Assembly (NCBI RefSeq): GCF_002879865.1
Contig: NZ_PNXY01000004.1
Span: forward strand, 248,001-312,000
Direction of reading: 5' to 3'
Source: Paraburkholderia rhynchosiae
GTDB lineage: Bacteria; Pseudomonadota; Gammaproteobacteria; Burkholderiales; Burkholderiaceae
Length of the DNA stretch: 64,000 nt
The notes under the pieces were generated by a model that worked only from the letters and a program-made list of their open reading frames with translations, did not search any database and was not told where the DNA came from. Shown here one piece after another: positions 40,055 to 64,000 of this stretch. How positions within the stretch are numbered: the first letter of the stretch is position 1; each line of letters begins with the position of its first letter. A program made the position numbers and the translations under genes.

Positions 40055-41263
40055 TCACCAGTTCCACAGCGTGCCGTCTTCGAGACGCGCAACGGGCAGA
40101 TACGCCGGGTCGTATGGGAAACGCGCGGCCGCGGCTTCGTCGATATCGACGCCGTGACCCGGCGCATCGCCCGGATGCATCATGCCTTTGTCGAAGCGCC
40201 AGGCATGCGGGAACACTTCGAGCGCCTCCTCAGGAAAGCCCATGTATTCCTGAACACCGAAGTTCGGCACCCACAGGTCGAAATGCAAGGCCGCGCCCAT
40301 GCACACCGGCGACAGGTCCGACGGCCCATGACAACCCGTGCGCACCTGGTACAGCGAAGCAAAATCAGCAATGCGCCGAAGATGCGTGATGCCGCCCGCG
40401 TGGGTCAACGTCGCGCGGATATAGTCGATCAGTTGCTCCTCGACCAACTGCTTGCAGTCCCAGATACTGTTGAACACCTCGCCGACTGCAATCGGCGTCA
40501 CCGTATGCTCGCGAATCAGCCGGAAGCCGGCCTGGTTCTCGGCGGGCGTGGGGTCTTCCATCCAGAACAGGCGATACGGTTCAACCGATTTGCCTAGACG
40601 CGCCGCCTCGATCGGTGTCAGGCGATGGTGCACGTCGTGCAGCAGATGGCTATCGAAGCCGAACTTGTCGCGCACGGCTTCGAAGAGCTTCGGCACAAAG
40701 TCGAGATACTTTTCCGACGACCAGCTTTGCTCTTCCACCGCGCCCTTCGTCGCCGGCTCGTACATGCCGCTGCCTTTCGACACGCCATAGACCGAGCGCA
40801 TGTTCGGCACACCGCATTGAATACGAATGGCCTGATAGCCGGCCTCGATGTGCTCGGCGTAACGGTCGAGCGCTTCGGGAATGTCGCGGCCGGTGGCGTG
40901 GCCATAGACCATGACACCTTCGCGCGACGCGCCGCCGAGCAGCTTGTACAAGGACATGCCCGTGACCTTGCCGAGAATGTCCCACAGCGCCACGTCGACG
41001 GCGGCGATTGCCGTCATGGTGACGGGACCGCGGCGCCAGTACGCGCCTTTGTACAGATACTGCCAGGTGTCCTCGATACGGCCAGGATCGCGGCCGATCA
41101 GCAGCGGACACACATGGTCTCTCAGATACGATGCAACCGCCAGTTCGCGGCCATTGAGCGTGGCGTCGCCGATACCGTGCACGCCTTCATCCGTGACGAT
41201 TTTCAGTGTGACGAAGTTGCGGCCTGGGCACGTGACAATCACGTCGGCGCGAACGATTTTCAT
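40055..41263 (-). CDS. manD: D-mannonate dehydratase (enolase superfamily, ManD/RspA)
   Basis: 402 residues from ATG 41263, exactly the ManD length; the ORF start at 41317 lies outside homology. N-terminal capping domain, then barrel with the metal ligands Asp in [11 protein letters not shown], Glu in [12 protein letters not shown], Glu in AVGEVFNS, and catalytic His in [20 protein letters not shown]. ManD removes water from D-mannonate to give 2-keto-3-deoxygluconate. First gene of the row, divergent from uxuB, whose product supplies mannonate. High-activity versus low-activity class cannot be told by eye, but context favours true ManD. Confidence 0.9.
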
Positions 41264-41512
41264 GTCTGCTTCCTTGCTTAAGACGGGTCTTGCACGGCGC
41301 GGAAACCGCGGTCGCATTGGACTCGCGGCTTGCGGTTTTCATGTCGCTTTCAACGAGGCGATGCGGCGACGCGGCTATTGAATTCAGCTTCAACTGCTTG
41401 CCTCGAATCGTTTAAACGATGCTACCATACAAGTATAGCGAGACGTCAAATCAGGGTTTTCCCGCTGACTCACGGCGTTTTCCGGCCTGTTACCTCATCT
41501 GGACTTCACTAC
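41264..41512. promoter_or_regulatory. divergent manD/uxuB control region
   Basis: 249 bp. Contains a perfect 14-bp palindrome ATCGTTTAAACGAT (41407-41420) followed at once by CTACCATACAAGTATAG (41422-41438), an imperfect palindrome around ATAC-AA-GTAT. GntR/FCD regulators bind short palindromes of this kind, so this is the best candidate operator for the cluster regulator. Confidence 0.6.
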
Positions 41513-43034: not shown

Positions 43035-44858
43035 TCACGCCGTCGGCTCGGCCTCGTGCCCTTCGGTTGCGCCTTCGCCGGCTTGCGCGTGCACGGCTTC
43101 CACCCGTTGCACCTGCTCACCGCGGCGCGCTTCGAGTACGTCGTGATAACGCAAATAGGCACACCGTCCCCCCGATTTCGCGGCGTACATCGCCGCGTCG
43201 GCGTTCAGCAGCAGTTCCTCCGCCGTGCCGCTATCGTCCGGAAACTGGCTGATGCCGATACTCGCGCCCACCGTCATGCTTTGACCGTCCATCACGATCT
43301 CTTCATTCAGTGTATCCATGATGCGCGACGCGATGCCCGGCGCCGCTTCCGCTGAACGCGGCCCTTCAATCAGCACGATGAATTCGTCGCCGCCAAGACG
43401 CGCGACGACATCCGCGGAATGCAGTACCTGCTTGAGCCGGCGAGCGACCGCAACGAGCACCTTGTCGCCGACCGAATGGCCGAACTGATCGTTGATCTGC
43501 TTGAAGCGGTCGAGGTCCACGAATAGCACCGCGAGCCCTTCACGGCGACGCGTCGCTTCCTGGATTGCACGTTCGAGCTTTTCCATGAACAGCATGCGGT
43601 TCGGCAATCCGGTCAGCACGTCGTGCGTGGCGAGATGCACGAGTTCGCGCTGCTTGACATGCAGCGCGTCCATCTGCGATCTGATTTCGCGGCGCAAACG
43701 ATCGAAACAGCGCGCGAGCACGCCGATCTCGTCGGTGCGTTTGAGCGGCAGTGTTTCCATTGCGTGCTCGGCGAAAAGATGCGTCGCCGCATACGCGAGA
43801 ATATGAAGCGGCTTGGTCAGCGCGCGTGCAAACAGAATCGCGAGAAACAGCGCCAGCACGCTCGAAATCAGCACCATGCGGATGATGCTACCGCCAAGCA
43901 GATGCGCGCCCGACAGCACATCTTCGAGCGGCTTGCCGAGCCCGATGACGATAAAGCGGTTGCCCCCCGACGCGCCGAACGGCCTGCGCATGAAGGCGAG
44001 CACCTGCCCCTGCGCCTGCCGCGGACGCGCGAGGCCGTTCACCAGTACTTCGCTTTCCTTCTGCTCGAAAAGCGGCTTCGTGACGGCGAAACTGTCCTGC
44101 ATCAGCACCCGGCGGCCTCTGTCGAAGCCGAACGTTTTCGATGTATCGGGATGAACGAGGAAGTCGCCCCATTCGTTGGCGAGATAGACCTGATAGTCGC
44201 TCGGCAAATCGCTTTGCAGGCGTTTGAGCAAACCCGCGAGGTCCACGTCGATCACGACGACGCCCACTACCGCGCCCTGTGCGTTGGCCACGGGCGTGCC
44301 GACCCGCAGCGTCGGTTTGCCTTGCGCCGCGTGCGCGCCGTATTCGTGATTGACTGACATCGGCGACGTGTAGATGCGTCCCGGCGAAAACGCGAGCGGC
44401 TCGAACACATACGGAAACTGGCCTTTTTCCTGCAGATTGCCGCCCTCCACGCGCATCAGTCCGTCGGCATCGCGGTCGAAGCGAATCAGTTCCAGGCCGT
44501 AATGTGCGCGGCTGATCAGGCGGATTTGCAGGTATTCGGCGTGATGGATCATGAAGCTCGAGTACACCTGCGCGAGCCGTTCTCGCGACGGGTTAGCGCG
44601 GGAGCCGTCATCGGTCGATGCGATTTCGGCCGACGAAGGCAAGCTCGCGAGCACCAGCGCGTCGGCGCCGACATCGTCGATCGATTCGGAAAAACGCTGG
44701 CCCAGCAATTCCGTCGACGTCAGCAGACTGTGCGCCGCTTCCTTCACCAGCATGGTGCGGTTCGCGCGATACGCGTAATAGCCCGTCGCGCCCGACGCCA
44801 GCACGCCGATGCACGCGAGCAGGATCGACAGCTTGAAGGTGAGGCCTGGGCGGATCAT
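43035..44858 (-). CDS. membrane diguanylate cyclase with periplasmic sensor and HAMP
   Basis: 607 residues from ATG 44858. Helix 1 at about 8-28, a 290-residue periplasmic region with the look of a double-Cache sensor (IVYTSP-like YTSPMSVN, VGVVVIDVDLAGLLKRLQSD), helix 2 near 325-345, HAMP, then GGDEF (active site RLGGDEFIVL; VLFVDLDRFKQINDQFGHSV). The product should be c-di-GMP. The inhibitory I-site RxxD is degenerate: HSAD stands five residues before GGDEF, so feedback control is probably lost. Its ATG overlaps the stop of the PotD-like gene (TGATG), so the two are coupled. Confidence 0.92.
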   Translation of the reverse strand: MIRPGLTFKLSILLACIGVLASGATGYYAYRANRTMLVKEAAHSLLTSTELLGQRFSESIDDVGADALVLASLPSSAEIASTDDGSRANPSRERLAQVYSSFMIHHAEYLQIRLISRAHYGLELIRFDRDADGLMRVEGGNLQEKGQFPYVFEPLAFSPGRIYTSPMSVNHEYGAHAAQGKPTLRVGTPVANAQGAVVGVVVIDVDLAGLLKRLQSDLPSDYQVYLANEWGDFLVHPDTSKTFGFDRGRRVLMQDSFAVTKPLFEQKESEVLVNGLARPRQAQGQVLAFMRRPFGASGGNRFIVIGLGKPLEDVLSGAHLLGGSIIRMVLISSVLALFLAILFARALTKPLHILAYAATHLFAEHAMETLPLKRTDEIGVLARCFDRLRREIRSQMDALHVKQRELVHLATHDVLTGLPNRMLFMEKLERAIQEATRRREGLAVLFVDLDRFKQINDQFGHSVGDKVLVAVARRLKQVLHSADVVARLGGDEFIVLIEGPRSAEAAPGIASRIMDTLNEEIVMDGQSMTVGASIGISQFPDDSGTAEELLLNADAAMYAAKSGGRCAYLRYHDVLEARRGEQVQRVEAVHAQAGEGATEGHEAEPTA

Positions 44859-46000
44859 CAAAAGCGCTCCGAGCGGTCGCCGGACACGATTCTGCCCCAC
44901 AGGTCCTCGCGCCGTTGAATGTCCTCCACCGGACCGATCCACACGATGCGAGCGCTGTCGCTATTCGCAGCCGCGGCGGTCAATGTATTCGCGAGTCCTT
45001 GCCGCTGGGTCAGCAACTGGCTCACGTCCGGTTCGAGCATGTAGTTGATCCACGCGAGGGCCAGCGCCGGATCGGCGGCTGCACGCGTCATCGACCAGCA
45101 ATCGAGCCATGCGAGCGCGCCTTCGTCGGGAATCACGTAGCCGACGTCGGCGCCCGCGCGGCGCAGCAATTCCACTTGCTGCGTGCCGTAGTTGCCGAAC
45201 ATCAGCGCGACTTTATGCTGGATGAAAAACGCTGTCGCTTCTTCGGGCAGCGTGTAATAGGTCAGCAGATTGCGGCGCAGATCGACCAGCTTGTGCGCGA
45301 TTGTGCGCATCTGCGTCGCATTGAGGTCGAATGGATTGCGATAACCCAATGCCAGGGCCGTGAACGAGAAATTGTGCTGTGCGCTGTTGAAGTCGAGCAC
45401 CTTGCCGCGGTATCGCGGGTTCCACAGCTCGCGCATCGAGCGCGGCGCAACCGCGACCTGTTTGCGGTCGTAAATGAGCCCCATCGACGAATAGGTAAAC
45501 GGGATTGCGTAGACCTTGCCGTCGAACGTCAGCCCTTCAATCGACGAACGCGCCTGGAAGCGCGGCAACTGGCTTCTGGTGTTGGGCAGGCTTTGCAGAT
45601 CGAGCGGCGCGAGCAGATTGGCGCGCCTGTAGCGCTGGACTTCCGCGGTGTTGGCGGCGAGCACGTCGAAGGGTGCCGTGTTCTGCGCGTGCATTTGCGC
45701 CCACAGCGCTTCATCCGAATCGACGAGCGTCACTTCCACCTTCGCGTCGTAGCGCGACTCGAAAGTCTTGACTACGTCTGCATCGGCGTAACCGGGCCAG
45801 GCGAGCACGTGCAGAACTTTCTTTCCAGCTTCAGCCGATGCGCTCGAGAGCAGCCCAAGACAGAAAAGCGCACTTGCGACGAGCCGGACGAAAACGCCAA
45901 AACCGCCGAAACCGCTGCGCGCCGCCAACCGTGCACGCGACGAAGCCACTGCAACCCGCGGCTGGCCGTGCCGTTTACAACAGCGCATTTCATCTGCCAT
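44858..46000 (-). CDS. PotD/PotF-like periplasmic binding protein coupled to the diguanylate cyclase
   Basis: 380 residues from ATG 46000; in-frame ATGs at 46009 and 46015 are alternatives and none has a strong ribosome binding site. A signal peptide follows a basic leader (FVRLVASALFCLGLLSSASA). The mature part is a spermidine/putrescine-binding-protein fold (KVLHVLAWPGYADADVVKTF, SMGLIYDRKQVAVAPRSMRE, ADVGYVIPDEGALAWLDCWS). No ABC permease or ATPase is adjacent; the only partner is the downstream cyclase, so a sensing role for polyamines is more likely than transport, as for NspS with MbaA (inference). Confidence 0.85.
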   Translation of the reverse strand: MADEMRCCKRHGQPRVAVASSRARLAARSGFGGFGVFVRLVASALFCLGLLSSASAEAGKKVLHVLAWPGYADADVVKTFESRYDAKVEVTLVDSDEALWAQMHAQNTAPFDVLAANTAEVQRYRRANLLAPLDLQSLPNTRSQLPRFQARSSIEGLTFDGKVYAIPFTYSSMGLIYDRKQVAVAPRSMRELWNPRYRGKVLDFNSAQHNFSFTALALGYRNPFDLNATQMRTIAHKLVDLRRNLLTYYTLPEEATAFFIQHKVALMFGNYGTQQVELLRRAGADVGYVIPDEGALAWLDCWSMTRAAADPALALAWINYMLEPDVSQLLTQRQGLANTLTAAAANSDSARIVWIGPVEDIQRREDLWGRIVSGDRSERF

Positions 46001-46621
46001 CGAAATCATGTGCATACAACACCATTTAGCAGAAGGCAGTTTCCGGCGAACAAACGCCCGCGTGAATGACTCGCGTATTAATACTGGAGACGTTTTCCTC
46101 AGACAGAAAAAAGCGCTTTGCGCTGCCTGGCAAGCGCGAGGAGCAACGATGATAGCGCTAAGCAATCTGTTTTTGGTTTCCCTGCCGCGTCAATGCCTGA
46201 AATAACTGATCATCGGCGGGACACGACGGGCATTCATCACCTGATAACGGCACGTGCTTAACTTTCTTTAATAATTGCGGGCGATTAAAACGTCAGGCCC
46301 TGACGGTTTTCATTTAACGATTCGCATTACGTCCTCATTACGTCCTCATTGCGGTTTTTCGCCGCGGACAGGCATGGTCAATGCCGCATGCATTCACTGC
46401 CACGCCGCGCGAGCCGGCGGGCTTTCAGTGGGCGGCCGTGCGCGGTTCGCTATCCGGTGTTTCACTAACTACCCAATATTTTTGAACTGATAAGCTTGGC
46501 GCGCGCTGCTGGCCGCCCCGGCCGGCGGCTTCAACCCAGGCCCGGTCGTAAGTCGCGCCGGGTTTCCCGCAGCGGCACAACCGCATGCGGGAGTATTTGA
46601 ACTACACCGAGGAGTTAAACA
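46001..46621. other. intergenic region upstream of the amino-acid binding protein gene
   Basis: About 620 bp divergent region, AT-richer than the surroundings, without a convincing gene. It contains an exact 11-bp tandem duplication (CATTACGTCCT, 46325-46346). It should hold the promoters of the PotD-like/cyclase pair and of the 46622 gene, but no clear -35/-10 pair was identified. Confidence 0.4.
46325..46346. repeat. exact 11-bp tandem duplication
   Basis: CATTACGTCCT occurs twice in tandem, followed by CATT. Lies about 280 bp before the binding-protein gene; could be a recent slippage or a paired regulator site. Confidence 0.6.
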
Positions 46622-48906: not shown

Positions 48907-49218
48907 TCAAAATGCCGGAATAATCGCGCCTTTGAACTGCGTGCTGGTGTACTTGCGCACTTCATCCGATTCATACGCCGACGGCTCGTTCTGGATGCCG
49001 ATCTTCGCGCCTTCCGGCAGATCCTTGAGCGACTTTAGCTTCTTCGAATAGAAGCCCATTGGCGACACATACGTCAGGCCCACATTGACGATCCTGTAGC
49101 CGCGCTGCCTGATCTGGCTATCGAGAAACGGCTGATGCTGAAAGCCGTTGGCGTCGAGATCGTCCGCATCCAACGCTGCGTTCGGCTGCACGTAGTCGTT
49201 GAATTCGATCATCTTCAC
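48907..49218 (-). pseudogene. MetQ/NlpA lipoprotein remnant (5' truncated, internal deletion)
   Basis: The frame reads IEFNDYVQPNAALDADDLDA, NGFQHQPFLDSQIRQRGYRI, SPMGFYSKKLKSLKDLPEGA and KIGIQNEPS, all MetQ blocks, then jumps directly to the family's C-terminus (VRKYTSTQFKGAIIPAF). About 110 central residues are gone and the lipoprotein signal peptide is missing; an in-frame stop lies two codons before the first residue shown. No metN or metI is adjacent. A D-methionine binding protein is what was lost. Confidence 0.85.
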
Positions 49219-56926: not shown

Positions 56927-57970
56927 GTGATCAGCATGCCAAGGTTGCGCCCGTTTGCCATGACTCTGGCGTTGAGCGTCGCGAGCATGGCGCCCGCTCT
57001 CGCTGCAGGAAAAATCACCTTCGTGTCGCAAGGCGGCACTTATCAGGAGGCCCAGACCAAAGCCATTCTCGACCCGGCGGCCAAGGAGCTGGGCATCACG
57101 ATCAATCAGGACAGCATTCCGGACGCGTGGCCGCAGATCAAGGCCCAGGCTGCCACCGGCAAGCCGATCTGGGACGTGGTGGATACGCCCACTTCCAACT
57201 GTCTGCGCGGCGGCCGCGAAGGGTTGCTCGAAAAGCTCGACTTCTCGAAGATTCCCAACGCCGCCGCGATGCCTGAAAAGTACCGTACGCCCTACTCGGT
57301 CGCGTACGAGTTCTATTCGACTGTGATCGGCTACAACAAGAAGACGCTGAAGAAGGTGCCGCAAAGCTGGGCGGATTTCTGGAATGTAAAGGCGTTCCCC
57401 GGCACGCGCGCGCTGCGCAACGATCCTCAGACGGTGCTCGAAGCCGCGCTTCTCGCCGACGGCGTATCTCGCGACAAGCTGTATCCGCTCGACGTGGACC
57501 GTGCCTTCAAGAAACTGCAGCAGATCAAGCCTGACATCACGGTCTGGTGGACCTCGGGTGGCCAGTCCGCGCAATTGCTGCATGACGGCGAAGTCGATAT
57601 GACGATGATCTGGAACGGCCGCGCGAGTGCGGTTCGCAAGGACGCTCCCGACGTCGACTTCACGTTCAATGACGGCATTCTGCAAAACACGCAGCTGTGC
57701 GTGCTGAAGAATGCGCCGAATCTGAACGACGCGATACGCTTCCTCAACACCGCGATCTCGCCGGAGTTGCAGGCCAACCTGCCACTCTACATCGACTACG
57801 GTCCGGGCAATCCGGCTGCATTCAAGACCGGCAAGATCACGGCCAAGCGCGCAAGCGAGCTCCCCAGTTCGCCGGAAAATGCCGCGAAGCAGGCGCTGAT
57901 GTCTGAAGATTGGTGGGCCTCCGATGCAGGCATCCAGGCGAAAGCGCGCTGGCTGAAGTTCATGCAGTAA
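56927..57970 (+). CDS. ABC transporter substrate-binding protein (PotD/spermidine-putrescine type)
   Basis: 347 residues starting at GTG 56927 behind GAGGAG. Signal peptide (FAMTLALSVASMAPALA), then SBP family: GKITFVSQGGTYQEAQTKAI, VDTPTSNCLRGGREGLLEKL, TVWWTSGGQSAQLLHDGEVD, MTMIWNGRASAVRKDAPDVD. The type binds polyamines, opines or related amines. Permeases of the same class are encoded 4 kb away on the opposite strand (61292-62994) with no second binding protein in between, so this is their likely partner. Ends before a terminator. Confidence 0.9.
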   Translation: MISMPRLRPFAMTLALSVASMAPALAAGKITFVSQGGTYQEAQTKAILDPAAKELGITINQDSIPDAWPQIKAQAATGKPIWDVVDTPTSNCLRGGREGLLEKLDFSKIPNAAAMPEKYRTPYSVAYEFYSTVIGYNKKTLKKVPQSWADFWNVKAFPGTRALRNDPQTVLEAALLADGVSRDKLYPLDVDRAFKKLQQIKPDITVWWTSGGQSAQLLHDGEVDMTMIWNGRASAVRKDAPDVDFTFNDGILQNTQLCVLKNAPNLNDAIRFLNTAISPELQANLPLYIDYGPGNPAAFKTGKITAKRASELPSSPENAAKQALMSEDWWASDAGIQAKARWLKFMQ

Positions 57971-58001
57971 CGGCCGCGCGACTAGCGCCAGGCCATTGAC
58001 G

Positions 58002-58035
58002 CGCCCGCGGGAACACTGTTCATCGCGGGCGTTTT
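58002..58035 (+). terminator. intrinsic terminator after the binding-protein gene
   Basis: CGCCCGCG / CGCGGGCG stem (58002-58009, 58024-58031), 14-nt loop, then TTTT. Separates the binding-protein gene from the GMC oxidoreductase. Confidence 0.75.
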
Positions 58036-58123
58036 GCATCTTGCCGCGGGTTATCGTGCTCATCGTGCCCATGGCGCTCATCGCACATACAGCCATGAGC
58101 CACGCGCTCTTTATCTATTCAAC

Positions 58124-59836
58124 GTGATCGACTATCTGATTCTCGGCGGCGGATCGGCCGGCTGCGTGCTAGCCGCGCGTCTCTCCGAAGACGCCGGCAA
58201 AACCGTGTGCCTCGTCGAGGCAGGCCGCGACATCTCGCAGGCGACGATGCCTGCCGAGATTCGCAGCCGCTATCCGGGCCGCGCGTATCTCGACACCGCG
58301 AACATCTGGCAGCAACTCAAAGCGCGCATGAGCGCGCCTGCCGCACTGCGCCGCTATGAACAGGCGCGGCTGCTCGGCGGCGGCTCCGCGATCAACGCAT
58401 TGATGGCGAACCGCGGCGCACCCGCCGACTACGACGAATGGCAAGCACTCGGCGCGCAAGGGTGGAACTGGCAAGCGTGTCTGCCGTACTTCCGCAAGCT
58501 CGAAACGGATTGCGACTTCGGCAACTCGGGCGACAGCGGCCTGCATGGCGCAAGCGGCCCGCTGCGCATCCAGCGCACTGGCTGGCCGCGCATCTCGCCA
58601 TTCGTGAAGGCCGTGCTGGACACATTGGACCAGCAGGGTTATCCGCTGCGCGCTGATCAGAACGGCGCATGGGAAGACGGCACATTCATTGGCTCGATCG
58701 CGGTAAGCGCGAGTGGCGAACGCATCCCCACATCCGTTTGCTATCTCGACGATGCCGTGCGAGCGCGGCCCAACCTCACAATCCGCACGGATGAGATCGC
58801 CGAGCGCATCCTGTTCGATGGCCAACGTGCAAGCGGCGCCCGCCTTGTTCGGCGTGACGGCCAACATACGGATACGCATCACGAATTGCGGGCCGGCTGC
58901 GTGATCGTCTGCTCGGGCGCGATCCACTCGCCCGCATTGCTGCTCAGAAGCGGGATCGGCCCCGCCGACGAACTTGCCGCGCTCGGCATCCCCATGCGCG
59001 CGCATCGCGAAGGCGTGGGCCGCAATCTGATGGAGCATCCGTCGATCGCGGTGTCGGCGTTTCTACCTCGCGCGGCACGCACGCCGTTTCCCGACGAGCA
59101 TCACGAACAGGCGATCCTGCGCTTTTCATCGGGTTTGCCCGGCACCGTGCAGGGCGACATGCACGGCGCGATCCTGTCACGCTCGGGCTGGCACTCGGTC
59201 GGCTACCGTCTCGGCACGATGTTTTTCTGGGTCAATAAATCGTATTCGCGCGGACGTCTGAAGCTTAAATCCGCGAGCGCGTTCGATGAACCCGACGTCG
59301 ACTTCGCGATGTTGTCCGATCCTCGCGATCTCGAACGCCTGAAGCTCGCACTACGTTTGGGTGCAAGGACGCTGGCTGCGCCGTCGATGGCCGCGCATCG
59401 CGGCGTGCTGTTTCCGTCGAGCTATTCGCCGCGAGTTGCAGCCGTCGCTGTGCCTGGCGTGTGGAACGCGTTACAGCGCGGCGCGCTGAGCGCATTGCTG
59501 GACATCGCGGGCCCATTGCGAGGATCGCTCGTGCGCAGCGTGGTGACGCAAGGCGTGACGCTGAACGATCTGCTCGCCGACGATGCCGCGATGACGCACT
59601 TCGTCACACGTTCAGTGGGCGGCACGTGGCATCCGTCGGGAACCTGCCGGATGGGCGCCGCCGACGATCCGCTCGCAGTTACCGATGCGCGCGGCGCCGT
59701 CTACGGCGTCGAAGGCTTGCACGTATGCGATGCGTCGTTGATGCCTTCGATTCCATGCGCCAACACGAATGTGCCGACAATTATGATCGCTGAGCGCATC
59801 GCCGACCTTCTGCGCGGTCGTGCGAGCGCCGCTTAA
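58124..59836 (+). CDS. GMC-family FAD oxidoreductase (choline dehydrogenase-like)
   Basis: 570 residues from GTG 58124, chosen because VIDYLILGGGSAGCVLAARL is the standard GMC N-terminus; the frame is open further up to 58034 and no strong ribosome binding site marks either start. ADP-binding GGGSAG, ERPAD-like QARLLGGGSAINALMANRG, GAIHSPALLLRSGIGPADEL (GMC signature 2), and the C-terminal catalytic His-Asn region GTWHPSGTCRMG with SIPCANTNVPTIMIAERI. It oxidises an alcohol to an aldehyde, which the converging aldehyde dehydrogenase could use. The stop overlaps that gene's stop by 4 bp. Confidence 0.87.
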   Translation: MIDYLILGGGSAGCVLAARLSEDAGKTVCLVEAGRDISQATMPAEIRSRYPGRAYLDTANIWQQLKARMSAPAALRRYEQARLLGGGSAINALMANRGAPADYDEWQALGAQGWNWQACLPYFRKLETDCDFGNSGDSGLHGASGPLRIQRTGWPRISPFVKAVLDTLDQQGYPLRADQNGAWEDGTFIGSIAVSASGERIPTSVCYLDDAVRARPNLTIRTDEIAERILFDGQRASGARLVRRDGQHTDTHHELRAGCVIVCSGAIHSPALLLRSGIGPADELAALGIPMRAHREGVGRNLMEHPSIAVSAFLPRAARTPFPDEHHEQAILRFSSGLPGTVQGDMHGAILSRSGWHSVGYRLGTMFFWVNKSYSRGRLKLKSASAFDEPDVDFAMLSDPRDLERLKLALRLGARTLAAPSMAAHRGVLFPSSYSPRVAAVAVPGVWNALQRGALSALLDIAGPLRGSLVRSVVTQGVTLNDLLADDAAMTHFVTRSVGGTWHPSGTCRMGAADDPLAVTDARGAVYGVEGLHVCDASLMPSIPCANTNVPTIMIAERIADLLRGRASAA

Positions 59837-61260
59837 TCGCCATACCCGACGATGCCCTTCACTTCCAGAAACGCCTCGAGTCCCCACTCGCCGTATTCGC
59901 GGCCATTGCCCGATTGCTTGTAGCCGCCGAACGGCGAGCCCGCGTCCCATGACGGATAGTTGACGTACACGCTGCCCGCACGCAAACGGAACGCGACACG
60001 CCGCGCGCGCGCCTGATCCGCGGACTGCACATAGGCGGCAAGGCCGAACGGCGTGTCGTTGGCAATTGCGATGGCATCTTCCTCGTCGCGATACGGAATG
60101 ATTGCGAGGACGGGGCCGAAGATCTCTTCGTGCGCAATCGTCATCGAAGGGTCGACGTTCGCGAACACCGTAGGCCGCACGTAGTAGCCGCGCGTCAAAC
60201 CGTCCGGGCGTCCTGCCCCGCCCGCCGCCAGTTGCGCGCCTTCTTCAATGCCCTTTTCGATGAGCCGTTGCACGCGCGCGTATTGCACGTCGCTGACAAC
60301 CGGGCCCATCGTCGTTTCTATATCGCCCGCGGGACCGACACGATGCGCGGCCGCCGCGCGCTGTGCGATGCGCACAGCCTCATCATGCCGCGCTGCCGGC
60401 ACGAGCATGCGAGTCGGCGCGTTGCACGACTGGCCGCTGTTGCTGAAGCACGAGTTCACGCCGGAAGTCACGGCCGCTTCGAAGTCGACATCGTCGAGAA
60501 GAATGTTGGCCGACTTGCCGCCCAACTCCTGATGCACCCGCTTGACGCTCGGCGCGGCGAGCTTCGCGATCTCGACGCCCGCCCGCGTCGAACCTGTGAA
60601 CGACACCATGTCGACGTCCGGATGACTGCACAGCGCGGCGCCGACAGTCGGGCCATCGCCATTGACGAGATTGAACACGCCAGGCGGCACGCCGGCGGCA
60701 TCGATCATTTCGGCGAACAGCACCGCGTTGAGCGGCGACACTTCGCTCGGCTTGAGCACCATCGTGCAACCTGCCGCAATCGCGGGCGCGACCTTGCAGA
60801 CGATCTGATTGATCGGCCAGTTCCATGGCGTGATCAACGCGACCACGCCGACGGGTTCGTGATTGACGAGCGTCGTGCCTTTCTTGCGCTGCCACGCGAA
60901 GCTCTCGCAGGTCCGCAGCAGTTCTTCGAGGTGACGCTTGCCGAGCGCGGCCTGCCATGCATGCGACAGCGCTTTTGGCGCGCCGATCTCACGCGAGATG
61001 ATGTCGGCCATTTCGTCGTAGCGCGCCATATAGGCGTCGAGTATCCGGCGGATTAGCGCGACGCGTTCGGCAGGCTCGGTCAGCGAGAACGACACGAACG
61101 CGCGCTTCGCGGCGGCGACTGCTCGTTCGACATCGTCCCCGTTGCCGAGCGCGATTTCCGCGAACGCTTCTTCCGTGCAGGGATCGATCACAGGCAGGCG
61201 TGCCGTGCCCGACGGCGCGACCCACGCGCCGTCGATATAAAACTTCTGTGCGTTCGACAT
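59833..61260 (-). CDS. NAD(P)-dependent aldehyde dehydrogenase
   Basis: 475 residues. Catalytic Cys in CFSNSGQSCNAPTRML and Glu in VHQELGGKSANILLD; NAD loop VSFTGSTRAGVEIAK; N-terminal Asn in ALITPWNWPINQIVCKVAPA. Closest by eye to aminoaldehyde/aromatic aldehyde dehydrogenases. Last gene of the minus-strand row FAD oxidase, permease, permease, ALDH (32 bp after the second permease), so it probably oxidises the aldehyde formed by the FAD amine oxidase. Confidence 0.9.
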   Translation of the reverse strand: MSNAQKFYIDGAWVAPSGTARLPVIDPCTEEAFAEIALGNGDDVERAVAAAKRAFVSFSLTEPAERVALIRRILDAYMARYDEMADIISREIGAPKALSHAWQAALGKRHLEELLRTCESFAWQRKKGTTLVNHEPVGVVALITPWNWPINQIVCKVAPAIAAGCTMVLKPSEVSPLNAVLFAEMIDAAGVPPGVFNLVNGDGPTVGAALCSHPDVDMVSFTGSTRAGVEIAKLAAPSVKRVHQELGGKSANILLDDVDFEAAVTSGVNSCFSNSGQSCNAPTRMLVPAARHDEAVRIAQRAAAAHRVGPAGDIETTMGPVVSDVQYARVQRLIEKGIEEGAQLAAGGAGRPDGLTRGYYVRPTVFANVDPSMTIAHEEIFGPVLAIIPYRDEEDAIAIANDTPFGLAAYVQSADQARARRVAFRLRAGSVYVNYPSWDAGSPFGGYKQSGNGREYGEWGLEAFLEVKGIVGYGD

Positions 61261-61291
61261 CCGCTTTCCAGTGAGACCAAATGAATTGAGT

Positions 61292-62086
61292 TCAGGCCCG
61301 CGCGGTAGAGGATCGCCGGCTAACGACGACGATCATCACGAGGCACAGGGTAAGCGCCGTCAGCATGGTGCTGATCGCGGCGATGGTCGGATCGATCTCA
61401 TCGCGCAGCGTGACGAACATGCGCCGCGTCAGCGTCTGATTCGTGCCGCCCGAGATGAACAACGCGACCACGGTTTCATCGAGCGCCTGAATGAACACGA
61501 ACACCGCGCCCGAGATCACGCTCGCCTTGATCTGCGGCAGCGTTACCGCGAGGAAGCTGCGCAAGCGGTTCATGCCGAGGCTGCGCGCGACCATCTCCTG
61601 CGTTCGGTCGAAGGTGCGCAAATCGGCGCCCACGGAAATGAGCACGTACGGCAGGCCGAGCATCGTATCGGCGACGATCAGTCCGCCGAGCGTGTTCACA
61701 TAACCCGCTTGCGAGAACACAAAGAACACGCCTACCGCGACGATGATGATCGGCACCATCAGCGGCAACATCAACAGCGTGCGCAAATAGCGCATCGACC
61801 AGTGCGTGCCGTGCTGGATCGCGTAGGCCGCTGCGACGCCGAGCGGCGTCGCGACCAGGGCCGCGCAAACGGACGCGGTAAGCGTCGTGCGAGCCGCGTC
61901 GATCCACGCGGGATTGTCGAAGAACGCGTGATACCAGCGCAACGAGTAGGCCGGCGGCGGGAACGTCATGAAGCGCGTGTCGGAGAACGACAGCGGCACG
62001 ACGATCAGCACGGGCACCATCAGGAACACGAGAATCAGCACGACGAACACGCCGAGCACGACTCTGCCGAACGGGATCTTGTTCAT
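61292..62086 (-). CDS. ABC transporter permease (PotC type)
   Basis: 264 residues from ATG 62086, where ATGA overlaps the stop of the upstream permease by 4 bp. Six membrane helices; EAA loop with RSLGMNRLRSFLAVTLPQIK (the E-A-A-x-x-x-G equivalent is A-R-S-L-G). Type-I permease of polyamine/opine transporters. Its ATPase is not in the window; it may lie beyond 64000. Confidence 0.9.
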   Translation of the reverse strand: MNKIPFGRVVLGVFVVLILVFLMVPVLIVVPLSFSDTRFMTFPPPAYSLRWYHAFFDNPAWIDAARTTLTASVCAALVATPLGVAAAYAIQHGTHWSMRYLRTLLMLPLMVPIIIVAVGVFFVFSQAGYVNTLGGLIVADTMLGLPYVLISVGADLRTFDRTQEMVARSLGMNRLRSFLAVTLPQIKASVISGAVFVFIQALDETVVALFISGGTNQTLTRRMFVTLRDEIDPTIAAISTMLTALTLCLVMIVVVSRRSSTARA

Positions 62087-62994
62087 TTCGCGCCCAAGGT
62101 CTTTTCGAGTGGAATCACGCGGCTCGCGGCATAGAAGATCGCGAACACACAGAGCAGCAGCACGACACTGACCGCGCTCGCCGCGCCCCAACTGTTATAG
62201 ATCTCGACATTGCGGCTCACTACCATCGAGACCATGATCGACTTGCCGCCGCCCATCAGTTCGGGCGTGATGTAAAAACCGAGGCACAGTACGAACACGA
62301 GCGTGACGCCCGCCACGACGCCGCTCATCGACAGCGGCAGGAACACGCGCCAGAACACGTGCAGCGGCGAACCGCCAAGACTTGCGCCGGCCTGCGAGAG
62401 ATTCGCCGGGATCTTCTGCATCGCCGAATAGAGCGGCAGCACCATGAAGGGCAACAGGATGTGCACCATCGCGAGGATCGTGCCGAACTGGTTATAGGCG
62501 AGTTGCACCGGTCGATCAATAAGGCCCATTTCAAGCAGCGCCTTGTTGATGAGCCCCGTGCGCTGCAACAGCACGAGCCATGCGTAAGTACGCACGAGCA
62601 CGCTGGTCCAGAACGGCAGAATCACCATGCCGAGTATCAGCGCGCTCCAGCGTGGCGATACCGACGCCGCGAAATACGCAACCGGATAGCCGAGCAACAG
62701 CGTCACGCCCGTCACGATCACGCTGAGCTTGAACGTCATCAGGAACGTGTCGAGGTAAGTGCCAGTAAAAATGCGCTGGTAGTTGACGAGCGTAAAGCCG
62801 CCGTCATGCCAGATGGACTGCCACGAGAGCCACGCGAGCGGCACGACCAGCAGCACCACGACGACGAAAAGCGCGGGCGCGAGCAACAGCAGCATCGCGC
62901 GATCTTCGCGTTGCTGATGGTGCACCGACGGGTCCATCGTGGCGGTCTGCATCAAGCTGGGGTCCTGGAGAATCCGTTTGGCTGTCGTCATCAT
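62083..62994 (-). CDS. ABC transporter permease (PotB type)
   Basis: 303 residues from ATG 62994, overlapping the FAD oxidoreductase stop (ATGA). Six helices after a 40-residue cytoplasmic leader; EAA loop with LSQAGASLGGSPLHVFWRVF. Pairs with the following permease to form the membrane channel. Substrate inferred as a polyamine, opine or similar amine from the family of the binding protein at 56927 and from the oxidase upstream. Confidence 0.9.
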   Translation of the reverse strand: MMTTAKRILQDPSLMQTATMDPSVHHQQREDRAMLLLLAPALFVVVVLLVVPLAWLSWQSIWHDGGFTLVNYQRIFTGTYLDTFLMTFKLSVIVTGVTLLLGYPVAYFAASVSPRWSALILGMVILPFWTSVLVRTYAWLVLLQRTGLINKALLEMGLIDRPVQLAYNQFGTILAMVHILLPFMVLPLYSAMQKIPANLSQAGASLGGSPLHVFWRVFLPLSMSGVVAGVTLVFVLCLGFYITPELMGGGKSIMVSMVVSRNVEIYNSWGAASAVSVVLLLCVFAIFYAASRVIPLEKTLGAK

Positions 62995-64000
62995 GCACCC
63001 ACGGCGTCGAGAAACTGATACCACGCGGCGACGACGCGAACGCCCGGCGCGCGCAGCGAATGAAACGGCACCGGCCGCAAGCCTTGCTGACCGAGCAGGG
63101 CAAGCTCCGGCGTCTCGCCGAGCGCAAGCGCCGCAGCATGCTGGCCTAGCAGGCTAGCCATCGCGACACCCGCTCCGTTATACCCCAGACAAAAGGTCGT
63201 GGCATCGTCGCTGCGGCCAACGTGCGGCAACGCGTTGAACGTCATGCCGACATATCCCGACCAGCCATATTCGACGCGCACATCCGTGAGATCGGGAAAG
63301 AGCGCGATCATCGCGCGCCGCAATGCGTCGAAACCGGTTGCCTGCCCTTCCTTGCCGAACGCGTCACGCCCGCCGAACAGCATGCGGCCGTCCACCTTGC
63401 GAAACCACTTCATCATGCGGCGTGTTTCCGTATAGCTGCGGCGCTGCACCATCAGCCGCATATCGAGTTCCCCGGGCAGGCGCTCGGTTGCGATCATCGC
63501 GCTGCGAAACGGCACGAGTTCGCGTTGATACGCGGCGGTGGCGGACGTGAGATTGGAATACGCGTTGGTCGCCACGATCACCTGCTTCGCCTGCACGGTG
63601 CCGCCAGGCGTTCGCAGCACGACGACGCCGGGCCCGCGTTGGGAGCGCGTCATTTCGAGAACCGGCGTCGCTTCGTAGATCGGCACGCCGCGCGCGGTGA
63701 GACCTCGCGCGAGACCGTAGACATATTCGAGCGGCAGGATCGTGCCGGCATCGGCGCTCAACACGCCGCCGACGAATCCTGTCGATCCCGTCTCGCGCGT
63801 CACTTCTTCGCGCGACTGCACGGTCATCGACGTGTCGCCTAACTGCGTGCGCACCCAGTCGGCTTCCGCGCGAATCGCGGCGAGCGCGCGCTCGGTGTGC
63901 GCGCAACGCAGGCTGCCCGTATGCTCAAAACGCGCGCGTTCGAGCTTGAATTCGTCGATAAACGATTCGACCACGCGCACGCCATCATGCGCGAGGCGGT
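62991..64000 (-). CDS. FAD-dependent amine/D-amino-acid oxidase, PuuB/DadA type (5' end outside the window)
   Basis: The frame is open to the window edge, so the N-terminal FAD Rossmann motif is not visible. The visible 336 residues show the middle and C-terminus of a glycine/D-amino-acid oxidase family enzyme: QVIVATNAYSNL, FRSAMIATERLPGELDMRLM, YGWSGYVGMTFNALPHVGRS and YNGAGVAMASLLGQHAAALA (FAD-contacting end). Gamma-glutamylputrescine oxidase or opine oxidase fit the transporter and ALDH in the same coupled row (4-bp overlap with the permease). Confidence 0.88.
   Translation of the reverse strand, partial: RLAHDGVRVVESFIDEFKLERARFEHTGSLRCAHTERALAAIRAEADWVRTQLGDTSMTVQSREEVTRETGSTGFVGGVLSADAGTILPLEYVYGLARGLTARGVPIYEATPVLEMTRSQRGPGVVVLRTPGGTVQAKQVIVATNAYSNLTSATAAYQRELVPFRSAMIATERLPGELDMRLMVQRRSYTETRRMMKWFRKVDGRMLFGGRDAFGKEGQATGFDALRRAMIALFPDLTDVRVEYGWSGYVGMTFNALPHVGRSDDATTFCLGYNGAGVAMASLLGQHAAALALGETPELALLGQQGLRPVPFHSLRAPGVRVVAAWYQFLDAVGA

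What the first reader, a model, noticed from the sequence alone, without database searches (positions are those of the whole stretch)
43035..46000. NspS/MbaA-like pair: PotD-type binding protein coupled to a diguanylate cyclase
A polyamine-type periplasmic binding protein overlaps the start of a membrane cyclase and has no transporter beside it. In Vibrio cholerae NspS (PotD-like) controls MbaA (c-di-GMP enzyme). Here the partner has only GGDEF, with the I-site RxxD degraded to HSAD, so it could be an unbraked, purely synthetic version: a polyamine to c-di-GMP switch not described to my knowledge in this genus.
Basis: partly seen in the sequence, partly recalled or inferred. Interest (0 to 1): 0.75.

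Follow-up and report, generated by a model that had tools for sequence, protein, structure and literature searches.

The report
Sugar-type binding protein wired to cyclase
In Paraburkholderia and its relatives a gene for a PotD-like binding protein and a gene for a predicted c-di-GMP-making membrane enzyme stay side by side; the binding protein is predicted to catch a sugar or sugar acid rather than a polyamine, and the pair would likely tie biofilm-type behaviour to food outside the cell.

Summary
In detail: a PotD-fold binding protein (SBP) overlaps by one base a GGDEF-only membrane cyclase with a double-Cache sensor, no matching transporter beside it, I-site changed to HSAD. The pair is a unit: both genes occur in the same 100 of 144 same-genus genomes, adjacent in all 100, and in five further families. 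The polyamine reading is not supported. In a maximum-likelihood tree the SBP falls outside the PotD/PotF/NspS-like clade (joining it with NspS-like SBPs is rejected, p-AU 3.3e-9). Two carboxylate columns filled in 10 of 10 polyamine-type rows are Gln and His in 13 of 13 pair rows. The importer SBPs closest at pocket-mapped columns lie in sugar-oxidation gene clusters in the 3 genomes read (two genera). Best reading: a two-gene receptor, arisen apart from NspS-MbaA on the SBP side, in which an SBP for a sugar or sugar acid (inferred) likely docks on the cyclase's Cache domain and would set c-di-GMP synthesis. I-site loss holds for most Paraburkholderia and Caballeronia loci read, and is not special: published MbaA proteins lack it too. 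Ligand, docking and sign of the response are untested.

The parts
44858..46009 (-). PotD-fold periplasmic solute-binding protein, 383 aa plus stop (start codon uncertain)
   Evidence: PF13416 E 1e-29; 26 PDB sequence hits at E<=1e-3, the first 24 of them solute-binding proteins; tree and pocket columns
43035..44858 (-). membrane diguanylate cyclase, 607 aa plus stop: TM1, double-Cache periplasmic sensor, TM2, HAMP-like linker (not matched by Pfam HAMP in this protein), GGDEF
   Evidence: PF00990 E 2e-49, PF21623 41.1 bits over its cut-off 27, dCache_1 below cut-off; hydropathy at about 2-26 and 318-355; AF2 mean pLDDT 80.3
43899..44762 (-). periplasmic double-PDC (dCache-type) sensor, about residues 33-320 of the cyclase
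43380..43421 (-). HSAD (degenerate I-site RxxD), VVARL and the GGDEF active-site motif, residues 480-493
   Evidence: sequence, motif; invariant columns D448, N456, D457, G489-F493 in 22 orthologs
44856..44860 (-). stop/start overlap TGATG joining the two genes
   Evidence: overlap 1 nt in 57, 4 nt in 42 and 7 nt in 1 of 100 other loci
40058..41317 (-). neighbour: D-mannonate dehydratase ManD (context only, not part of the unit)
   Evidence: NF043051 729.6 bits, cut-off 550; the only match over that cut-off in the genome
41330..43012 (+). neighbour: fructuronate reductase / mannitol dehydrogenase family (context only)
   Evidence: PF01232/PF08125 over cut-off; NF011611 450.9 bits, below its cut-off 603

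Best explanation
The two genes form a conserved two-gene unit in which a PotD-fold periplasmic binding protein, predicted to capture an aldose sugar or sugar acid rather than a polyamine, likely docks on the double-Cache periplasmic domain of a GGDEF-only membrane protein and would thereby switch its predicted c-di-GMP synthesis. Shown by sequence: the two proteins, their domains, the intact GGDEF motif, the overlap, the linkage, and the SBP's place among SBPs of sugar-type ABC loci. Inferred: export, ligand class, docking, passage of the signal through TM2 and the HAMP-like linker to the GGDEF dimer, and that the loaded SBP activates (it could also repress). In the window's protein and most Paraburkholderia and Caballeronia loci read the product-inhibition site is gone, so an active cyclase would not be held back through it.
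For: Linkage: same 100 of 144 genomes, adjacent in 100 of 100. Both genes in 100 of 100 loci fetched for one of them (80 by the SBP, 20 by the sensor; some records appear twice) while neighbours differ: ArgT/AstE 44, PhnM 19, ManD 16, UxuA 12 of 100. The same SBP-plus-sensor pair occurs in five further families (L308-L313, 6 of 6 with sensor and GGDEF), once with the output GAF-GGDEF-EAL (L308), as expected if SBP and sensor are the working match. Ligand class: pair SBPs group with ABC SBPs of Rhizobium, Phaeobacter and Paraburkholderia (17 rows, 100/99) whose loci hold sugar-type genes (family names for L225 are below NCBIfam cut-offs). Importer SBPs L302-L305 share 14 of 17 pocket-mapped residues at 43-44% overall identity. 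I read out three of these loci, from two genera: sugar-acid dehydratase over NF004784's cut-off in L314 and L316 (L315's begins with the same 75 residues as L316's), AraD1 over its cut-off in L314 and L316, aldose 1-epimerase in L314 and L315, a xylose-dehydrogenase-like SDR just under its cut-off and an aldehyde dehydrogenase in L316. Against polyamine: column 278 is Asp in 10 of 10 polyamine-type rows and Gln in 13 of 13 pair rows; column 212 is Glu/Asp in 10 of 10 and His in 13 of 13.
Against: No ligand or docking was measured or modelled; the SBP model is weak (mean pLDDT 65.4). Pocket columns rest on PotD contacts that I recalled and mapped by alignment; N120, at NspS D90's place, is also Asn in two of the three NspS-like SBPs, so that column does not tell the groups apart. 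In a 50-row tree the pairs are not one clade: pairs, orphans and two loci beside exporters mix in an unresolved 25-row group. The 29 class-level sensor relatives read have no SBP within the held flank, up to 1.5 kb, so this kind of sensor can work alone. Seven SBPs of the clade have neither ABC nor GGDEF within about 1.5 kb, two more an ABC hit that is an MsbA-type exporter in the one read. One importer of the clade, L306, has Ala at column 278. Neighbours do not settle the ligand: L190 (P. kururiensis) lies beside an agmatinase over its cut-off and PuuC/PuuR-like genes below theirs, and 44 loci beside an arginine/ornithine-type SBP.
Confidence: 0.48

Rival explanations
1. Polyamine switch: the SBP binds spermidine, putrescine or norspermidine and drives the cyclase, an NspS-MbaA relative.
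For: PotD-fold SBP and same gene order; Trp301/Asp303, shared with polyamine SBPs, are kept; agmatinase and PuuC/PuuR-like neighbours in one locus (L190); ArgT neighbours in 44 of 100 loci.
Against: Tree and AU test, replaced carboxylates at columns 212 and 278, 20-22% identity to NspS-like SBPs, closest importers read lie in sugar clusters.
Confidence: 0.15
2. Orphan SBP plus self-sufficient cyclase: the Cache domain binds its own ligand, and the SBP feeds an ABC importer elsewhere; the genes are merely co-expressed.
For: Sensor relatives in the 29 loci read lack an SBP; orphan SBPs of the same clade exist; a sugar-type importer with a 33-35% related SBP exists in one genome of the genus (G086).
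Against: Linkage unbroken in 100 of 100 same-genus carriers and found in five other families through changing neighbours; no genome in the genus set has one gene without the other.
Confidence: 0.25
3. The SBP acts without ligand change as an assembly or stability partner of the cyclase, whose activity is set mainly by lack of the I-site.
For: RxxD absent in 63 of 79 readable named loci.
Against: Pocket-mapped residues stay nearly unchanged across pair, orphan and L302-L305 importer SBPs, which argues that a ligand still matters; the Burkholderia loci keep the I-site.
Confidence: 0.1

Closest known systems
NspS-MbaA of Vibrio cholerae and Sinorhizobium meliloti (PMC8079147 passages; PMC9993111 abstract, passages, section 17)
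   Same: PotD-fold SBP gene directly before, and overlapping, a periplasmic-domain-HAMP-GGDEF membrane protein; acts without import; I-site absent in both
   Different: MbaA has SGDEF plus EAL/EVL and can degrade c-di-GMP; NspS-like stand-ins lie in the polyamine clade; here GGDEF only in Burkholderiaceae, another SBP clade, D236 column replaced
ArtI with STM1987 in Salmonella (PMC8846402, passages)
   Same: SBP required for a Cache-type GGDEF cyclase to sense a nutrient (arginine)
   Different: ArtI is of another SBP family (recalled); gene linkage not looked at here
[not shown]
   Same: fold of the cyclase's periplasmic domain
   Different: no SBP partner known to me; 6 of 9 class-level sensor relatives scanned are histidine kinases
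PotD-fold SBPs of sugar-type ABC importers (Rhizobium p3/pRL12, Phaeobacter, G086, G1046, G1080, G1100)
   Same: nearest SBP kin, 31-44% identity; L302-L305 share 14 of 17 pocket-mapped residues
   Different: adjacent ATPase and permeases instead of a cyclase

Membership tests
NspS-MbaA | SBP gene immediately before or overlapping a membrane GGDEF protein | tested here: met
   1-nt overlap; 1, 4 or 7 nt in 100 of 100 other loci
NspS-MbaA | SBP belongs with NspS inside the PotD/PotF polyamine clade | tested here: not met
   AU test p 3.3e-9 against one clade with three NspS-like SBPs from GGDEF-EAL pairs; V. cholerae NspS itself was not available
NspS-MbaA | norspermidine-contact residues W41, D70, D90, F131, Y233, D236, W261, D263 (list from PMC9993111) | tested here: not met
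   mapped through L266/L268/L281: W71, W301, D303 kept, D70 as E100; D236 is Q278; D90 is N120, but Asn also stands there in L266 and L281; F131 and Y233 not settled
NspS-MbaA | partner carries GGDEF and EAL | tested here: not met
   607 aa, GGDEF only; orthologs 577-625 aa in 100 loci; EAL only in the far relative L308
NspS-MbaA | at least 30% identity over 60% (cut-off of PMC9993111) | tested here: not met
   SBP 20-22% to NspS-like SBPs; sensor HMM 18.7, 8.1 and 2.1 bits against MbaA-like sensors versus 91-188 for 29 other receptors; stand-ins, not the V. cholerae or S. meliloti proteins
NspS-MbaA | response to polyamines | not testable with these tools
   needs binding and c-di-GMP assays
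dCache/HK_sensor_dom_bact GGDEF receptors | double-PDC periplasmic domain between two TM helices, then GGDEF | tested here: met
   PF21623 and GGDEF over cut-off, fold match; dCache_1 itself below its cut-off
ABC importer SBP | ATPase and permease genes beside the SBP | tested here: not met
   0 of 100 loci with a PotB/PotC-type hit; control: 27 of 29 sampled PotD-like loci have ABC hits within 1.5 kb

The most novel reading that the evidence does not exclude
A second, independently evolved binding-protein-to-c-di-GMP switch: a sugar-importer SBP was cut loose from its ABC transporter and rewired to a Cache-GGDEF receptor in Burkholderiales and neighbours, and carries plant-type aldose or sugar-acid signals straight into c-di-GMP across Paraburkholderia, Caballeronia and Burkholderia, mostly unbraked by product in the first two.
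Probability: 0.4. Interest if true: 0.78.

Novelty: new variant of a known kind. Interest (0 to 1): 0.6.

Why it matters
Few SBP-driven c-di-GMP receptors are described, and the inputs of most cyclases are unknown. A pair kept together in all 100 carriers found in one genus set and shared with Burkholderia gives a directly testable input for c-di-GMP in plant-associated bacteria, and suggests that the NspS-MbaA layout arose more than once on the SBP side. It also warns against reading 'PotD-like' as 'polyamine'.

Tried and rejected
Rejected: NspS membership. Rejected as decisive: neighbourhood. Mannonate dehydratases of two unrelated families lie beside the pair (ManD 16, UxuA 12 of 100 loci), the window's ManD being the only one over the cut-off in the genome and UxuA absent there; but 72 of 100 loci have neither in the held flank, and phosphonate, arginine-type and in one case agmatine genes also occur. 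A lead only.

Led nowhere: the LuxQ-periplasm search for a Vibrio genome (1 of 339, below cut-off), so V. cholerae NspS/MbaA were never in hand; L266, L268 and L281 stand in by architecture and residue spacing. Shinella, Ensifer and Methylobacterium SBPs looked at for NspS gave ABC loci (68 unannotated). The SBP model is too weak for a pocket reading. Paper searches: (41, 93 and 98 listed only 15 of 127, 37 and 30); no listed title or abstract describes this pair. PMC6335245 (passages, section 14) studies mutants of all 25 c-di-GMP genes of B. cenocepacia H111; I could not match the ortholog's locus tag. PMC8155791 and PMC5309918 are not held. (a script) stopped half-way and was redone.

Limits of the surveys: one search scored at most 4, at most 5 candidates per genome, so absences there are soft. 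From I read 29 loci of the 54 other genomes with a match; I read 49 loci, 29 given and 20 that I picked.

Rows dropped: 8 long or odd rows before the AU test; second rows of G086 and G106. In one search L296 and L297 show a PotA hit; on L317 shows an MsbA-type exporter beside L296, so I count both apart from importers (L297 not read out). One search's 'ABC' group still holds them.

Full report

The pair is a unit. In 144 same-genus genomes the SBP is found in 100 and the sensor in 100; the sets are identical and the two genes lie on one contig and strand, next to each other, in all 100, two of them damaged (G106, G130). In the family 101 of 398 genomes and 5 of 25 genera carry the sensor, with at most 4 candidates scored per genome. 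80 named loci fetched by the SBP (of 520 relatives found) include Paraburkholderia, Caballeronia and Burkholderia, B. cenocepacia among them; together with 20 loci fetched by the sensor all 100 hold both genes (some records appear twice). Junction overlaps are 1, 4 or 7 nt (57, 42 and 1 of 100). What lies around them changes: ArgT/AstE 44, PhnM 19, ManD 16, UxuA 12 of 100. Searches at E <= 1e-40 found SBPs of this type in 15 of 200 genomes of the order and 8 of 239 of the phylum, the window's own included in both. Of the 21 loci outside the window's family, 6 hold the pair with the same sensor, 6 have a PotA-type hit beside them (5 of these a permease hit too), 7 show neither, and 2 have a hit that is an MsbA-type exporter in the one read. 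The six pairs, read out further, all have sensor and GGDEF; in one the output is GAF-GGDEF-EAL (L308). In a 50-row tree the Burkholderiaceae pairs and the f209 pairs form one clade (12 rows, 100/99) but the other four pairs lie among orphans in an unresolved 25-row group, so one early pairing with later losses and several pairings are both open.

How unusual is it? In a class-wide sample (143 genomes, 51 with a match) I read 49 loci of PotD-like SBPs outside the window's genome. Of the 29 handed out by the search, 27 have ABC hits within 1.5 kb and none is followed by a GGDEF gene (L249 has a GGDEF gene upstream as well as an ABC hit). Of 20 further ones that I picked, 11 have ABC hits and 4 are directly followed by a GGDEF gene (L266, L268, L270, L281). 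L266, L268 and L281 encode Cache-type-HAMP-GGDEF-EAL partners and carry most of the NspS contact residues at the published spacing (with PMC9993111; at D90's place L268 has Asp, L266 and L281 Asn); I use them as stand-ins for NspS-MbaA.

Not an NspS. A maximum-likelihood tree of 85 SBPs puts the 13 pair SBPs in one clade (100/100) beside ABC SBPs of Rhizobium, Phaeobacter and Paraburkholderia (17 rows, 100/99), while L266, L268 and L281 sit in the PotD/PotF clade (46 rows, 100/99). Holding the pair SBPs and the three NspS-like ones together costs 118.7 log-likelihood units, p-AU 3.3e-9, on 77 rows after 8 long or odd rows were dropped. L270 is a long branch and stays open. On the receptor side the sensor profile scores 91-188 bits against 29 receptors of the class, 6 of 9 scanned being histidine kinases, and only 18.7, 8.1 and 2.1 bits against the MbaA-like sensors; a profile-profile comparison still gives 79% probability over 211 columns, so both are probably distant Cache domains. 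None of those 29 receptors has an SBP in the held flank. So at least the SBP side looks recruited twice.

Ligand. In the 28-row site table the Asp of the (W/Y/F)-x-G-D motif, NspS D236 by alignment, is Asp in 10 of 10 polyamine-type rows, Gln in 13 of 13 pair rows and Gln in 4 of 4 rows of the sugar-type ABC clade (the further importer L306 has Ala); PotD Glu171's column is Glu or Asp in 10 of 10, His in the 13 pair rows and Asn in those 4 ABC rows; L270 fits neither. Trp301 and Asp303 are largely common to both kinds. At 17 columns mapped from PotD contacts that I recalled, the window's SBP shares 14 residues with importer SBPs L302-L305 at 43-44% overall identity, 15-17 with the other pairs, 15-16 with the orphans, and 4-7 with NspS-like SBPs. 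I read out three of those importer loci (L314-L316; two genera). L314 and L316 hold a sugar-acid dehydratase of the L-arabinonate dehydratase kind (over NF004784's cut-off, just under NF009559's) and AraD1 over its cut-off; L314 and L315 an aldose 1-epimerase; L316 a xylose-dehydrogenase-like SDR just under its cut-off and an aldehyde dehydrogenase; L315's dehydratase was not scanned but starts with the same 75 residues as L316's. The more distant importers sit with RbsD/FucU, amidohydrolase and aldo/keto reductase genes (Rhizobium), lactonase and MR/MLE genes (Phaeobacter), and Amidohydro_2, Aldo_ket_red and galactarate/altronate-dehydratase domains (G086). I infer an aldose or sugar acid; which one is open. 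Against this stand the agmatinase neighbourhood of one locus and the arginine-type neighbour of 44.

I-site. RxxD is intact in 16 of 79 readable named loci, all recorded as Burkholderia, in some divergent relatives including two same-genus genomes (L106, L107), and in 4 of 6 out-of-family pairs, where the other two were not matched by my pattern; it is absent in the other 63 named loci. Since MbaA of V. cholerae and S. meliloti also lack it (PMC9993111, section 17), 'unbraked' is a real but not a distinguishing trait.

Literature. PMC9993111 (abstract, passages, section 17) surveyed NspS-MbaA in 16,076 proteobacterial genomes; the word Burkholderia does not occur in its main text. PMC8079147 (passages) describes the V. 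cholerae pair. PMC8846402 (passages) gives ArtI-STM1987. PMC9602780 (passages) treats SBP activation of receptors in general. PMC6335245 (passages, section 14) covers B. cenocepacia c-di-GMP genes; what I read names no SBP partner. No title or abstract in the listings describes this pair.

Verdict. Observation confirmed; interpretation partly supported. The unit is a new variant of a known kind: an SBP-coupled c-di-GMP receptor, evolved apart from NspS-MbaA on the SBP side, with a likely sugar-type input.

Noticed in passing
G106:C2:790226-791436 (same-genus genome): The sensor matches in two overlapping pieces in different frames, so the cyclase gene looks broken there while the SBP matches in one piece. 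Left as it is.
   Followed up: no
G130:C10:67825-68380, L226: A 4.3-Mb same-genus genome matches only over fragments of both genes, side by side: both seem to decay together.
   Followed up: no
L308:1941-6064: Same SBP and same sensor with a GAF-GGDEF-EAL output in another family: an output swap behind one sensor.
   Followed up: partly
window 48907-49218 (-): 103-aa ORF of which about 80 residues match part of a longer ORF in relatives (for example within L149:1798-2637; 27 of 100 loci): looks like a remnant.
   Followed up: no
window 56927-63024: A separate PotD-like SBP (PF13416) with, by eye, PotB/PotC-type permeases, a GMC-type oxidoreductase and an aldehyde dehydrogenase: looks like an amine-type uptake and catabolism locus; not scanned.
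   Followed up: no
P0013, P0071, P0077, P0083, P0098: Some orthologs of the cyclase are named 'deoxyuridine 5'-triphosphate nucleotidohydrolase' in a public source, an apparent misannotation.
   Followed up: no
L270:3204-6181: A long-branch PotD-like SBP followed by GGDEF and a cut EAL domain: possibly a third recruitment.
   Followed up: no
L190:8923-12166 (P. kururiensis): Pair next to agmatinase and PuuC/PuuR-like genes, the one polyamine-type neighbourhood seen.
   Followed up: partly
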